A stretch of DNA of 48,674 bases from Clostridia bacterium (lineage in GTDB: Bacteria > Bacillota > DSM-521 > Neomoorellales > JACIYF01), in the NCBI GenBank assembly GCA_014360065.1, contig JACIYF010000008.1, positions 1 to 48,674 of the forward strand. The letters run 5' to 3'. The notes under the pieces are model-generated. The model saw only the letters and a program-made list of their open reading frames with translations. It ran no database searches and had not been told where the DNA came from. Positions 30,592-36,885 of the stretch are shown one piece after another; positions within the stretch are counted from its first letter, which is position 1; every line of letters starts with the position of its first letter. The position numbers and the translations under genes were made by a program.

Positions 30592-30639
30592 TGGCAAGTC
30601 AATTACTGCCATGAAAGTTGGAACTGGTGGAAAGTGGAC

Positions 30640-31407
30640 ATGGCCTTAATACGGTTTGGAACATACTTCCATGAATGTAAAGCTATCATCTTTGACAAAG
30701 ATGGAACCTTGCTCGATACTTTTGCCATCTGGCCACGTTTAATTAAGCGACGCTTGGAATTTCTGAGTCGCGAAATATCGCTAGGACCTGAACAATCTTT
30801 GCGGGTGGCGCAGGCTATGGGGTGGGCTACGGCTGGAGAAAAGTGCTGGGTAATGAGGCGTAGTCCCATCGTGCTGGGTACTCGGGAGCAAACGGCTGCA
30901 GCGGTAAGCACGGTCTTATATTTAGACCTGGGGTTACCTTGGGACGAAGCCATGAATAAGGTGCTAAAGGCCTTTTCTGCATGCGATCAGGAGTTGGGGG
31001 TGGAGTGGCAGGCAATACCCATTCCCGGAGTACCGGAAATGCTGCGGCGACTGGCCGAGGAAGGGTGCCAAGTAGCCCTAGCTACCAACGACAGCCTTGA
31101 GCGCGCTCGGCAACTCATGGTAGCAGCTAAACTGGATCCCTATATAACCGCGTACGCTTGCCGCGATGAAGTATCAGATGGCAAACCTGCGCCTGACATG
31201 GTTGAGCTGGCTTGCCGTCGTTTAGGCATTAGCCCGCATGAGTGTGCTGTAGTGGGTGATTCAATACTGGATATGCGGATGGGGAAGGCAGCAGGGGTAG
31301 GATTGACGGTAGGCGTCCTAACTGGTGCCTTCACCCAAGAAGAATTCTCTGGGTGGACCGATGTAGTCATTGCTAGCGCCGCTATGATCTCGCCGGTTGG
31401 TTCCTGA
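30640..31407 (+). CDS. HAD-superfamily hydrolase
   Basis: A 255-aa haloacid-dehalogenase-type phosphatase. Motif I is IIFDKDGTLLDTF (D19 nucleophile, D21), motif II lies in ALATND, the lysine motif in SDGKPAPDMVE, and motif IV in VVGDSILDMRMGKAAG. The helical cap follows motif I, as in phosphoglycolate phosphatase/PGMB-like enzymes. The substrate is not decidable. ATG 30640 is preferred over GTG 30634 because GGTGG is then 9 bases away. It lies between the efflux gene and a DUF89 phosphatase, all on the plus strand. Confidence 0.85.
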   Translation: MALIRFGTYFHECKAIIFDKDGTLLDTFAIWPRLIKRRLEFLSREISLGPEQSLRVAQAMGWATAGEKCWVMRRSPIVLGTREQTAAAVSTVLYLDLGLPWDEAMNKVLKAFSACDQELGVEWQAIPIPGVPEMLRRLAEEGCQVALATNDSLERARQLMVAAKLDPYITAYACRDEVSDGKPAPDMVELACRRLGISPHECAVVGDSILDMRMGKAAGVGLTVGVLTGAFTQEEFSGWTDVVIASAAMISPVGS

Positions 31408-31437: not shown

Positions 31438-32319
31438 TTGCAGATGGATCTAGAATGTATTCCTTGTATAATTCGCCAAGCCTTGGGCGGAACCAGGTTG
31501 GTTACCGAGGATGTTGCAATTCAGGAACAAGTGCTTCGCCAAGTGCTCCTTCTTTTAAGCAAGATTGATTGGTGCCAGCCTCCTCCTGCTGCAATCCAGG
31601 CCGTGCAGGGAGAGCTAGTTTCAGTTGTCAATCAGGTAGACCCGTATGCCCAGGTAAAACGGGACTTCACCAAGCTTGCCCTATCCATTTATCCCGAGCT
31701 CCAAAGCCGGGTCGAGCAGGCCGATGATCGATTTGGAGCTGCGGTTCGAATAGCTATTATTGGAAACGTAATTGATTTTGGCGTTAACGCGGACTTGAAG
31801 GTTGACACCTTTCTTGAGGCCGTCCAAGAGTGTTTCCAGGCTGACCTGGATCAAGTGGCACTGAATCGTTTTCGGGAGGCAGCAGCCAGAGCCCAAACAA
31901 TTTTATATCTGGCTGATAATGCGGGAGAAATTGTCTTTGACCGCTTGCTACTGGGTGAGCTCAAGCGGCTAGGCCGGCCCGCCATCACGGTGGTGGTCAA
32001 AGGGCGCCCAACTTTAAATGATGCTACCATGGAGGATGCCAAGGCAGCAGAGATAACTGAACAGTATCCAGTTATTGATAACGGATCTGACGCTCCGGGA
32101 ACTATCCTAGCCGACTGCTCACCAGAATTCCGCCGCCGATTTGAAATGGTTGATTTGGTTATTGCCAAGGGGCAAGCCAATTATGAGACTCTCAGCGATG
32201 CCAAGCAGCATATCTTCTTTTTGCTCAAGGCTAAGTGTCCGATAATTGCTCGAGATATTGGCTGCAAGGTGGGGGATTTAGTCATTAAAGAACATAGGGA
32301 AGACCAGTCGAGAGGTTAA
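31438..32319 (+). CDS. DUF89/ARMT1-like damage-control phosphatase
   Basis: A 293-aa protein of the DUF89 family, metal-dependent phosphatases proposed to remove damaged or excess sugar phosphates and related metabolites. It has the subfamily N-terminus MQMDLECIPCIIRQAL with a CxxC pair, then IIGNVIDFG, LYLADNAGEIVFDRLLL (the metal-binding Asp-Asn block), and VIAKGQANYETL. TTG 31438 follows GGAAGGGGAG at 9 bases. The CxxC N-terminus is typical of the archaeal/bacterial subfamily. Its substrate is unknown. The stop is 62 bases before the promoter of the T-box operon. Confidence 0.87.
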   Translation: MQMDLECIPCIIRQALGGTRLVTEDVAIQEQVLRQVLLLLSKIDWCQPPPAAIQAVQGELVSVVNQVDPYAQVKRDFTKLALSIYPELQSRVEQADDRFGAAVRIAIIGNVIDFGVNADLKVDTFLEAVQECFQADLDQVALNRFREAAARAQTILYLADNAGEIVFDRLLLGELKRLGRPAITVVVKGRPTLNDATMEDAKAAEITEQYPVIDNGSDAPGTILADCSPEFRRRFEMVDLVIAKGQANYETLSDAKQHIFFLLKAKCPIIARDIGCKVGDLVIKEHREDQSRG

Positions 32320-32381: not shown

Positions 32382-32410
32382 TTGTCTATCGTAGTTAAAT
32401 ATGTTATCAT
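32382..32410 (+). promoter_or_regulatory. Sigma-A promoter of the T-box/serA operon
   Basis: TTGTCT (32382-32387), 17-base spacer, TATCAT (32405-32410); transcription would start near 32417. A 7-bp hairpin (32362-32368 with 32375-32381) abuts the -35 but lacks a T-run. Confidence 0.65.
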
Positions 32411-32416
32411 CTATGC

Positions 32417-32683
32417 TAAATTCATGGGTGAACCCGATGCTGGGGAGGAGTAAGCACGGACTCGGTATCAGCAGAGAGTTGGTGGCTGGTGCAAACCAAC
32501 CCGAGCCTGCAGAAAGGCACCCCAAAGGGGAAAACGAAGTCCCTGGAGAGGGAATAAGTTTATCCGGTGATGTCCGTTATGCATCGAGAGGGGATCCAGG
32601 TTGAGGTAGCTTGTGCCTGGGTCAACGAGGGTGGTACCGCGGGAGAAAACCTCTCGTCCCTACGTATGGGGCGAGGGGTTTTT
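32417..32683 (+). promoter_or_regulatory. T-box leader (tRNA-sensing riboswitch)
   Basis: The T-box core AACGAGGGTGGTACCGCGGG is at 32624-32643, preceded by a full Stem I. Stem I has the loop-E AGTA (32449-32452), the AGAGAG bulge (32473-32478), the distal GGTGGCTGGTGCAA loop, and GAA on the 3' side (32512-32514) before the specifier loop. The specifier appears to be GGC (32516-32518) followed by A, which would read glycine. The antiterminator bulge is TGGT, whose variable base T (32635) would favour a tRNA with A73. The leader controls the aminotransferase-serA-serS genes by terminator/antiterminator switching. T-box identity is near certain; amino acid identity is not. Confidence 0.93.
32650..32683 (+). 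terminator. Conditional terminator of the T-box leader
   Basis: CCTCTCGTCCC (32650-32660) and GGGGCGAGGGG (32668-32678) form an 11-pair stem with G-U pairs, then TTTTT (32679-32683). It competes with the antiterminator that includes the T-box core. Confidence 0.9.
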
Positions 32684-32706
32684 GAACTAAAGGAGGTAGA
32701 TCTAAA

Positions 32707-33873
32707 ATGGGGACAGCAAGGTCAGAAAGCCAGATTCTCCTATTGCCGGGCCCTACACCGATTCCCCCTAGGGTGTTGCGCGCCATAGGTGCTCCCATGA
32801 TCAACCATCGGGGCCCAGCTTTCAAGGCTATGCTGGAGGAAATTACGGGGGAGCTAAAGGAGATCTTTCAGACTCAAAATGATGTACTGATCCTTACCTG
32901 CTCGGGGACGGGCGGCATGGAGGCGGCCGTGGCTAACACCCTTTCCCCAGGGGATAAGGCGCTGGTAATCAGTATTGGTGCCTTTGGCGAGCGTTTCGCC
33001 AAGATTTGCAAAGCCTATGGGGTACAAGCGGAAGTACTAGACTACCCATGGGGCACGGCTGCTAATCCAGATGATATTGCTCGGCGGCTGGCAGAGGATC
33101 AGGGTCATGAGATCAGAGCTATTTTGGTCCAGCACAATGAGACCTCGACTGGCGTGCTCAATGACCTGGAAGCCATCAGCAAAGCCCGCGGGGATCATCC
33201 GGCCTTGTTGATTGTGGACTCGGTAAGCGGTATGGTAGCCGCTGACATCAAAACCGATGCGTGGGGCTTAGATGTTGTCATAACCGGAGCTCAAAAGGCC
33301 TTTATGATCCCGCCAGGCTTGGCCATGGTTAGCGTTAGTTCCCGGGCTTGGGAACGGATAGAGGCGTGTCGCAACAGCCGCTTCTACTTTGATTTTAAGG
33401 CTTATAAGGAATTCTACAGCATTGGGCAAACCCCCTTTACGCCAGCCGTAGCTACTATATACGGGCTTTATGAGGCGTTAAAGATGCTAAAAGAGGAGGG
33501 GCTAAGCAAGGCGCAGGAGCGCCATGCACTCTATCGGGCTATGGTTCGAGCTGGGGTAAGGGCATTGGGACTCGAGCTAGTTGCTTCCGATGCAGTAGCT
33601 TCTCCTGCCGTGACTACAGTTAGGGCTCCGTCAGGAATTAGTCCTGGTACTATTACTAGGTTGATGCGAGAGAAGTACAACGTAGTTATCGCCGGCGGAC
33701 AAGGTAAACTTAAAGATACTACTTTTCGCATCGGGCACTTAGGATACGTGCAGGTTACTGATTTGCTAGCTGCCATAGCGGCGCTGGAACTAGTCCTTGA
33801 GGAGTGCGGGTTAACCATTGAGAGAGGAGCAGGGGTGAGGGCAGCCCAGGAAGTAATAGCCCAAAGCAATTAG
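32707..33873 (+). CDS. Class V aminotransferase (alanine/serine-glyoxylate aminotransferase family; probable phosphoserine or glycine-forming transaminase)
   Basis: A 388-aa PLP enzyme of the AGT/SgaA/PucG family. It starts ILLLPGPTPIPPRVLRAI, has the GTGGMEAAVANTL phosphate-binding block, LLIVDSVSGM with the PLP-contacting Asp, and the Schiff-base lysine K197 in VITGAQKAFMIPPGLA. AAAGGAGG precedes ATG 32707. It sits between a T-box leader and serA where serC would be expected, so it may supply phosphoserine transamination. Family members also interconvert glyoxylate/glycine with alanine or serine. Sequence alone does not separate these; context favours serine/glycine synthesis. Confidence 0.85.
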   Translation: MGTARSESQILLLPGPTPIPPRVLRAIGAPMINHRGPAFKAMLEEITGELKEIFQTQNDVLILTCSGTGGMEAAVANTLSPGDKALVISIGAFGERFAKICKAYGVQAEVLDYPWGTAANPDDIARRLAEDQGHEIRAILVQHNETSTGVLNDLEAISKARGDHPALLIVDSVSGMVAADIKTDAWGLDVVITGAQKAFMIPPGLAMVSVSSRAWERIEACRNSRFYFDFKAYKEFYSIGQTPFTPAVATIYGLYEALKMLKEEGLSKAQERHALYRAMVRAGVRALGLELVASDAVASPAVTTVRAPSGISPGTITRLMREKYNVVIAGGQGKLKDTTFRIGHLGYVQVTDLLAAIAALELVLEECGLTIERGAGVRAAQEVIAQSN

Positions 33874-33934: not shown

Positions 33935-35533
33935 ATGGCTGATATGAATAGCTTCAAGGTGCTAGTTAGCGATCCTATTTCTGATAAGGGAATTGAAATG
34001 TTGAGAAATGCGGGAGTACAGGTAGAAGTCCGGACTAAACAGCCCGAGGACGTGTTGGTCAGCATCATCGGCGATTATGACGGGCTGATCGTGCGCAGTG
34101 AGACTAAGGTAACTAGGCGGATATTTGAGGCGGCCAACAAGTTGAAGATTGTTGGTCGAGCGGGTGTAGGCATCGATAACATAGATGTTTCTGCCGCTAC
34201 TGAAAAGGGGGTAGTGGTAGTAAATGCACCTGAAGGCAACACCATTGCCGCTACGGAGCACACTATAGGTCTGATGTTAGCGCTTGCTCGCAACATTCCC
34301 CAAGCTGATCGTTTGCTGCGCATGGGCAAATGGGAAAGAAAGCGATTCATGGGGGTAGAGCTCCGAAACAAGGTATTGGGAATAATCGGCTTGGGTAAGA
34401 TCGGAAGTGAGGTAGCCAAGCGGGCCCGAGCCTTGGAGATGAAAGTCATCGGCTATGATCCGTATGTTTCTCAAGAATGGACAGAGCGTATCGGAGTAAA
34501 ATTGGTTTCTTTTGAAGAAGTCTTAGCCGAGGCTGATTTCTTGTCAGTTCATCTGCCTTTAAGCCCTAGCACTTTTCATATGATTGGAGAAGAACAATTA
34601 GCTAAGACTAAACCGGGGGTTCGAATTCTGAATGTGGCCAGGGGTGGAATTATCGACGAAGAGGCCCTAGTTAAGGCCCTCAAGTCGGGGCATGTAGCCG
34701 GAGCCGCCATTGACGTATTTGAACATGAGCCGGCCACCGATAGCCCCCTGTTTGAGATGGATTCGGTAGTGGTGACTCCCCATTTAGGTGCTTCGACCGA
34801 GGAAGCCCAGGTGGGTGTGGCCATAGAAGTGGCTGAAGACTTCTTGCGAGTATTCAGGGGCGAACCAGCTAAAAACCCGGTCAACATTCCCACGGTGAAA
34901 CCGGAATTAATGGCAGCTATTAGCCCGTACTTAGACTTGGCAGAGAGATTAGGGCGGTTCATGGCCCAAATTGTGGAAGACAATATCCAGGCTATTGAGG
35001 TTCGATATAATGGTGAATTGGCTTCCTTGGAAACCACCCCTATTACCAATACTCTGCTTAAGGGCTTTTTGCGTCCTATGCTCCAGGATGCGGTAAATTA
35101 TGTTAACGCTCCTGTAGTGGCGAAAAGCCGGGGCCTTTTGGTTACTGAGAAGAAATCAGTCCAAATGGAGGACTTTGCCAACCTAATCACTTTGGTGGTT
35201 AAGGGCAAGGAAGGTGAGGAGCGCTCACTTGCTGGAACCTTGCTTAGCAATAAAGAGCCTCGAATAGTCAGGATTGATGGCTATAGCGTAGATGCAGTTC
35301 CGCAGGGTCATATGCTGGTGGTGCCTCATATTGATAAACCCAAGATTATTGGCCCTGTGGCCAATCTCATTGGTGCCCACGATATTAACATTGCCGGCAT
35401 GCAGGTGGGACGGAAGACTATTGGTGGGCGCGCGGTTATGCTTTTATCGTTGGACTCACCGGTACCGGCTGCCACTTTGGAGGAGATAAAGAAAATACCA
35501 GGGGTGTTCGGTGTACGGTATGTTTACTTGTAG
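33935..35533 (+). CDS. serA: D-3-phosphoglycerate dehydrogenase (long, ACT-containing form)
   Basis: A 532-aa NAD-dependent dehydrogenase, first step of serine synthesis. It has the catalytic and nucleotide domains of the 2-hydroxyacid family (GRAGVGIDNIDV, IIGLGKIGSEVAKRA, LNVARGGIIDEEAL, the AAIDVFEHEP Glu and TPHLGAST His), an intervening domain at ~320-450 as in type I enzymes, and a C-terminal ACT domain (~460-532, IGPVANLIGAHDINIAGMQVGR) that usually binds serine as feedback inhibitor. AAGGAG lies 5 bases before ATG 33935. It is the second gene of the T-box operon. Confidence 0.95.
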   Translation: MADMNSFKVLVSDPISDKGIEMLRNAGVQVEVRTKQPEDVLVSIIGDYDGLIVRSETKVTRRIFEAANKLKIVGRAGVGIDNIDVSAATEKGVVVVNAPEGNTIAATEHTIGLMLALARNIPQADRLLRMGKWERKRFMGVELRNKVLGIIGLGKIGSEVAKRARALEMKVIGYDPYVSQEWTERIGVKLVSFEEVLAEADFLSVHLPLSPSTFHMIGEEQLAKTKPGVRILNVARGGIIDEEALVKALKSGHVAGAAIDVFEHEPATDSPLFEMDSVVVTPHLGASTEEAQVGVAIEVAEDFLRVFRGEPAKNPVNIPTVKPELMAAISPYLDLAERLGRFMAQIVEDNIQAIEVRYNGELASLETTPITNTLLKGFLRPMLQDAVNYVNAPVVAKSRGLLVTEKKSVQMEDFANLITLVVKGKEGEERSLAGTLLSNKEPRIVRIDGYSVDAVPQGHMLVVPHIDKPKIIGPVANLIGAHDINIAGMQVGRKTIGGRAVMLLSLDSPVPAATLEEIKKIPGVFGVRYVYL

Positions 35534-35547
35534 AAAAGGTTTCTTAG

Positions 35548-36885
<1,338 letters not shown>

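What the first reader, a model, noticed from the sequence alone, without database searches (positions are those of the whole stretch)
32417..33873. T-box of the serine operon appears to carry a glycine specifier that conflicts with its antiterminator bulge
By position relative to the loop-E AGTA/GAA pair, the specifier reads GGC (Gly) followed by A, and no Ser codon occurs in the specifier loop. The antiterminator bulge is TGGT, which calls for a tRNA discriminator A, whereas bacterial tRNA-Gly normally has U73 and tRNA-Ser G73 (a U-G pair would be possible). Downstream are a glyoxylate/phosphoserine-type aminotransferase, serA and serS. Either glycine scarcity controls this operon, or the Stem I register differs from my reading.
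Basis: partly seen in the sequence, partly recalled or inferred. Interest (0 to 1): 0.6.

Follow-up and report, generated by a model that had tools for sequence, protein, structure and literature searches.

The report
Serine T-box with glycine-looking specifier
The RNA switch in front of a bacterium's serine operon shows a glycine codon where a serine codon is expected; related genomes suggest that it still senses serine tRNA, through one G-U wobble pair at the first codon position, which standard T-box rules do not allow for.

Summary
Window 32428-32664 is a class I T-box (Rfam RF00230, 101.4 bits). In the standard register (GAA-A-GGC-A-CCCC) its specifier is GGC (Gly), and its antiterminator bulge is UGGU. 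All three tRNA-Gly found in the genome have U73 and all four tRNA-Ser have G73, so specifier and bulge disagree for glycine. The seven other T-boxes of the genome are concordant.

Orthologous leaders point to an answer. In 27 leaders of the same aminotransferase operon, specifier positions 2-3 are always GC and position 1 is G (21) or A (6). AGC is the Ser codon read by tRNA-Ser(GCU). Two sister genomes differ at this specifier base, GGC versus AGC. The 21 GGC leaders carry UGGC (16) or UGGU (5), never UGGA. By contrast, 25 of 25 T-boxes upstream of glyQ in relatives carry UGGA. Two genomes hold both kinds: glyQ GGC+UGGA, ser operon GGC+UGGC.

Most likely this is a serine T-box whose specifier pairs with tRNA-Ser(GCU) through a conserved G1·U36 wobble. 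Glycine control is less likely. Dual sensing, with tRNA-Gly(GCC) as decoy, is not excluded: summed pairing energies in the window are near parity. No tRNA binding was tested.

The parts
32382..32410 (+). promoter-like TTGTCT-17-TATCAT upstream of the leader
   Evidence: consensus scan, 9 of 12 matches, 0.2 expected in shuffles; not evidence of function
32428..32664 (+). class I T-box leader, serine type by locus
   Evidence: Rfam RF00230, 101.4 bits, E=2.5e-21
32442..32445 (+). 5' strand (GGGG) of the Stem I helix below the specifier loop; pairs with 32520-32523
   Evidence: CM alignment and consensus structure of 26 orthologous Stem I sequences
32449..32452 (+). AGUA of the specifier-loop loop E motif
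   Evidence: read from the sequence, CM alignment
32512..32514 (+). GAA of the specifier-loop loop E motif
   Evidence: read from the sequence, CM alignment
32516..32518 (+). specifier GGC, followed by A 32519; first base proposed to wobble-pair with U36 of tRNA-Ser(GCU)
   Evidence: register from CM, in-genome T-boxes and orthologues with GGC or AGC in the same place; pairing itself inferred
32520..32523 (+). 3' strand (CCCC) of the Stem I helix below the specifier loop
32628..32641 (+). T-box sequence AGGGUGGUACCGCG; UGGU 32632-32635 is the tRNA acceptor-end binding bulge
   Evidence: CM alignment
32648..32683 (+). intrinsic terminator hairpin with T run; its 5' half (CGUCCCU) is the strand that the antiterminator uses
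   Evidence: fold of 32585-32690, -48.7 kcal/mol, z=-4.57; antiterminator pairing from the CM
32707..33873 (+). class-V aminotransferase; best NCBIfam model BhcA (367 bits, cut-off 650 not reached)
33935..35533 (+). serA, 3-phosphoglycerate dehydrogenase
   Evidence: TIGR01327, 702.8 bits over cut-off 454
35569..36885 (+). serS, seryl-tRNA synthetase
   Evidence: TIGR00414, 577 bits over cut-off 301.65

Best explanation
A serine-responsive transcriptional T-box whose specifier has G in place of A at its first base (GGC instead of AGC). Uncharged tRNA-Ser(GCU) docks on GGC with two G-C pairs and one G1·U36 wobble; its GCCA end pairs with the bulge (UGGC in most relatives, UGGU here with a U·G73 pair); this stabilises the antiterminator and turns on the aminotransferase, serA and serS genes when charged Ser-tRNA runs low. 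Shown here: the anatomy, the register, the discriminator bases, the conserved operon, and that specifier position 1 varies only between G and A while positions 2-3 stay GC. Inferred: tRNA-Ser binding, the wobble pair and the response to serine.
For: Specifier position 1 is G in 21 and A in 6 of 27 orthologous leaders, positions 2-3 invariant GC, as expected for pairing with U36. Sister genomes G002 (GGC) and G007 (AGC) differ at this base in the same CM columns with the same UGGC bulge. Bulge of GGC leaders: C 16, U 5, A 0, G 0; T-boxes before glyQ: A 25 of 25. G023 and G058 hold both types in one genome, with U73 tRNA-Gly and G73 tRNA-Ser. tRNA-Gly(GCC) U73 and tRNA-Ser(GCU) G73 through the order. 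Aminotransferase-serA-serS order kept in 7 of 7 genomes read, with GGC or AGC leaders. The proven serine T-box of P. polymyxa is AGC with UGGU (PMC8002221). Predicted pairing energy with GCU is the same for GGC and AGC (-0.9 kcal/mol).
Against: T-boxes are held to prefer strict Watson-Crick specifier pairing (PMC7778990). tRNA-Gly(GCC) pairs better with GGC (-2.6 against -0.9 kcal/mol), and in the window the sums of both contacts are near parity (Gly -4.1, Ser -3.7). If AGC is better or equal, the persistence of G over several families is unexplained. G004 has AGC with UGGA, so the bulge does not always fit tRNA-Ser. Leaders are related by descent, so counts are not independent. Nothing was tested by experiment.
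Confidence: 0.7

Rival explanations
1. A genuine glycine T-box: uncharged tRNA-Gly(GCC) reads GGC by three Watson-Crick pairs and tolerates a mismatch at base 73; glycine scarcity raises serine synthesis because glycine is made from serine, or because the aminotransferase makes glycine from glyoxylate.
For: GGC is the usual glycine specifier (0.77 of Gly T-boxes in TBDB, PMC7778990). Best codon pairing energy. The closest NCBIfam model of the first gene is an aspartate-glyoxylate aminotransferase, though below cut-off, and this genome has a separate canonical serC. No T-box was seen before glyQ in the four loci of the order that were read.
Against: All tRNA-Gly have U73, which pairs with neither UGGC nor UGGU. 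T-boxes before glyQ have UGGA 25 of 25, these leaders 0 of 21. The operon holds serS, not a glycyl-tRNA synthetase. AGC occurs in its place in close relatives.
Confidence: 0.12
2. A dual or competitive sensor: tRNA-Ser(GCU) is the inducer through the wobble, while tRNA-Gly(GCC), the perfect specifier match with the wrong acceptor end, occupies Stem I as a decoy, so that the operon reports serine against glycine charging. In UGGU leaders either tRNA might induce.
For: tRNA-Gly is predicted to bind the specifier better and tRNA-Ser the bulge better; the sums are near parity in the window. G at position 1 has been kept across several families although a single transition restores AGC. Response of one T-box to two tRNAs has been shown for B. 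cereus lysK (PMC2916919).
Against: No direct evidence; bare duplex energies ignore tRNA modification, the elbow contact and co-transcriptional kinetics. Sister species with AGC would have lost the feature without other change.
Confidence: 0.13
3. The specifier is read one base later, as GCA by tRNA-Ala(UGC), whose A73 pairs with UGGU.
For: tRNA-Ala has A73, and TBDB tests this frame as well (PMC7778990).
Against: 16 of 21 GGC orthologues have UGGC, which does not pair with A73. The other T-boxes of the genome use the GGC frame, and its alanine-type T-box has GCC in that frame. A tRNA-Ala(UGC) gene was not seen in this assembly.
Confidence: 0.03

Closest known systems
Serine T-box of Paenibacillus polymyxa serA (PMC8002221)
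   Same: serine synthesis gene downstream, terminator and antiterminator, specifier ending GC, bulge UGGU against tRNA-Ser
   Different: specifier AGC there (proven by mutation), GGC here; here the operon also carries an aminotransferase and serS
Glycine (glyQ) T-boxes, as in relatives of this genome
   Same: specifier GGC in the ones read in full (G023, G058)
   Different: bulge UGGA in 25 of 25 against UGGU here; glycyl-tRNA synthetase downstream against serine genes here
B. cereus lysK T-box responding to tRNA-Lys and tRNA-Asn (PMC2916919)
   Same: a specifier that may serve two tRNAs of different amino acids
   Different: ambiguity there lies within one mixed codon box and was shown in vivo; here it is at codon position 1 and untested
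C. acetobutylicum and B. subtilis alaS T-boxes (PMC4695836)
   Same: non-Watson-Crick specifier-anticodon pairing
   Different: mismatch or wobble at codon position 3 there, proposed wobble at position 1 here

Membership tests
Class I transcriptional T-box riboswitch (RF00230) | match to the family's covariance model over its whole length | tested here: met
   101.4 bits against gathering score 93, model 1-219
Class I transcriptional T-box riboswitch (RF00230) | T-box sequence, specifier loop with AGUA/GAA, and a terminator alternative to the antiterminator | tested here: met
Class I transcriptional T-box riboswitch (RF00230) | binds a specific uncharged tRNA and antiterminates | not testable with these tools
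   needs in vitro transcription or a reporter
Serine T-box | a Ser codon as specifier, Watson-Crick to a tRNA-Ser | tested here: not met
   GGC; no Ser codon in any frame of the loop
Serine T-box | bulge base able to pair with G73 of tRNA-Ser | tested here: met
   U·G73 wobble here, C-G73 in 16 of 21 GGC orthologues; tRNA-Ser G73
Serine T-box | serine synthesis or seryl-tRNA synthetase genes downstream | tested here: met
   serA and serS over their curated cut-offs, conserved in 7 of 7 genomes
Glycine T-box | Gly codon as specifier | tested here: met
   GGC at 32516-32518
Glycine T-box | bulge UGGA, complementary to U73 of tRNA-Gly | tested here: not met
   UGGU; tRNA-Gly all U73; glyQ controls UGGA 25 of 25
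Glycine T-box | glycine gene downstream | tested here: inconclusive
   no glycyl-tRNA synthetase in the operon; substrate of the aminotransferase not settled

The most novel reading that the evidence does not exclude
A T-box that integrates two amino acids: tRNA-Ser(GCU) induces through a first-position wobble while tRNA-Gly(GCC), the perfect specifier match with the wrong acceptor end, competes as a decoy, so that the operon reports the balance of serine and glycine charging.
Probability: 0.13. Interest if true: 0.75.

Novelty: new variant of a known kind. Interest (0 to 1): 0.5.

Why it matters
T-box specificity is predicted from the specifier codon under a strict Watson-Crick rule. Under that rule this group of serine leaders would be filed as glycine (or, through the discriminator check, alanine) sensors, and the regulated aminotransferase could be misannotated with them. 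If tRNA-Ser reads GGC here, the rule needs a first-position wobble term and a check of the bulge base. If tRNA-Gly competes, this is a natural two-amino-acid sensor. Either can be tested directly with two tRNA transcripts and one leader.

Tried and rejected
Folding Stem I as a single sequence gave no useful structure (z = -0.68); the register was fixed instead by the CM, the other T-boxes of the genome and an alignment. An automatic helix search for specifiers mis-assigned many leaders and was replaced by a stricter pattern plus reading by eye. A hidden tRNA with anticodon GCC and G73 was looked for and not found; the assembly may lack some tRNAs (Ala-UGC and Ile-GAU were not seen), so absence is not absolute. 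The Ala frame (GCA) was rejected because UGGC dominates in orthologues. Two-strand energy evaluation failed twice and duplexfold was used. Literature searches found no report of a GGC serine T-box, but two main T-box surveys that I recall (Vitreschak 2008; Gutierrez-Preciado 2009) are not held, so earlier mention cannot be excluded.

Full report
WHAT IS THERE. The window has one Rfam match, a complete class I T-box at 32428-32664 (+), 101.4 bits, E=2.5e-21. A promoter-like element lies just upstream. A strong terminator hairpin ending in a T run follows at 32648-32683 (fold z = -4.57); the CM pairs its 5' half into the antiterminator. Downstream are a class-V aminotransferase, serA and serS.

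REGISTER. In the CM alignment the 3' side of the specifier loop reads GAA-A-GGC-A-CCCC, with GGGG as the partner of CCCC and AGUA opposite. The same counting gives the expected codons in the other seven T-boxes of this genome: UGC before cysE/cysS, CUC before leuS, UUC before pheS and before DAHP synthase, GCC before an AsnC/Lrp-type regulator and an aminotransferase, AUC before ilvE, GUC before valS. Each has a bulge base that fits base 73 of its tRNA (gene names from translations; A73 of tRNA-Ile is recalled, its gene was not seen in the assembly). Only the serine leader is discordant: GGC with UGGU, while all tRNA-Gly found have U73 and all tRNA-Ser have G73.

ORTHOLOGOUS LEADERS. The aminotransferase gene was followed through two samples of relatives (150 genomes; 399 genomes) and the DNA upstream was read. 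GGC stands at the specifier in 21 leaders: the window, one genome of family f2, most of family f3, two of f35, and one each of f5 and f40. AGC stands in the same place in six (L098, L102, L118, L119, L121, L281), and also in the Planococcus loci (read by eye); one further leader (L109) was ambiguous. More distant relatives mostly have UCC with UGGC. In the alignment of 26 of these 27 leaders (L092 was read by eye) specifier position 1 is G or A and positions 2-3 are always GC. In the aminotransferase tree AGC leaders are scattered among GGC ones, although several forks are weakly supported; G007 (AGC) and G002 (GGC) are sisters, and their leaders differ at this base in the same CM columns. This is the pattern expected if U36 of tRNA-Ser(GCU) is the partner: A-U and G·U are interchangeable and the other two positions are fixed.

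BULGE. Among the 21 GGC leaders the variable bulge base is C in 16 and U in 5, never A or G. UGGC pairs with G73. UGGU can pair with G73 as a wobble and is the bulge of the proven AGC serine T-box of P. polymyxa (PMC8002221); TBDB reports such wobbles for Trp T-boxes (PMC7778990). As a control the glyQ genes of relatives were examined: 25 of 30 loci have a T-box and all 25 have UGGA, the complement of U73. Two genomes, G023 and G058, hold both kinds: glyQ GGC+UGGA and ser operon GGC+UGGC, with tRNA-Gly U73 and tRNA-Ser G73 in each (the G058 glyQ specifier was read by eye). The same specifier with two different bulge bases in one cell is hard to explain unless the tRNA partners differ. The leaders are related by descent, so the Fisher value (1.4e-13) shows only the size of the contrast.

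GENES. Aminotransferase, serA and serS are together in all seven genomes checked, with GGC or AGC leaders. In G023 and G058 the tRNA-Ser(GCU) and (UGA) genes lie in the stretch with the operon, after serS. A canonical serC is missing from 21 of 22 genomes of the order, so the class-V aminotransferase is a likely phosphoserine aminotransferase there (inference). The window's own genome does have a serC on another contig, so the role of the aminotransferase here is less certain.

MECHANISM. Most likely, uncharged tRNA-Ser(GCU) docks on GGC through G1·U36, G2-C35 and C3-G34, its GCCA end pairs with UGGU, and the antiterminator forms. Predicted pairing energies of GGC and AGC with GCU are equal (-0.9 kcal/mol), while GGC with GCC is -2.6. 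Adding the bulge, tRNA-Ser leads in UGGC leaders (-5.1 against -3.9), but the window's UGGU leader is near parity (-3.7 against -4.1) (values, summed here). These are bare duplex values without modifications or tertiary contacts. They show that tRNA-Gly could compete for Stem I, so a decoy or dual role stays open, above all in UGGU leaders. No binding or expression was tested.

AGAINST KNOWN KINDS. It is a member of the T-box family by every feature that could be tested. It fails the strict definition of a serine T-box (a Ser codon) and that of a glycine T-box (UGGA). By locus, bulge and orthology it works like a serine T-box. Watson-Crick rules of the TBDB kind would call it glycine or alanine (rules; its actual entries were not seen). 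The literature at hand describes non-Watson-Crick tolerance at codon position 3 (PMC4695836) and one T-box responding to two tRNAs (PMC2916919), but no conserved first-position wobble. Two main older surveys are not held.

LIMITS. The register of orthologues rests on pattern, alignment and CM for those shown, and on reading by eye for a few (L092, L097, L118). G004 combines AGC with UGGA, so exceptions exist.

Noticed in passing
L118 (G004), leader of the orthologous operon: AGC (Ser) specifier with UGGA bulge, a conflict of the opposite kind: the bulge fits U73 while tRNA-Ser has G73.
   Followed up: no
L308 (G000:C1:73700-73990), 133-218 on the minus strand: A tRNA-Sec-like match below gathering score (RF01852, 34.9 bits) that shares the 3' part of tRNA-Ser; ARAGORN finds no tRNA there. 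Possibly a degenerate tRNA or an attachment site.
   Followed up: partly
L345 (G000:C44:7456-8550): Canonical serC in this genome only, absent from the 21 other genomes of the order, although the class-V aminotransferase of the operon is present here too.
   Followed up: partly
L332, L334, L340, L341 (glyQ loci of the order): No T-box before glyQ, while 25 of the 26 other glyQ loci read have one.
   Followed up: no
window 31438-32319: ARMT1-like damage-control phosphatase gene just upstream of the leader, after a HAD phosphatase gene at 30634-31407.
   Followed up: no
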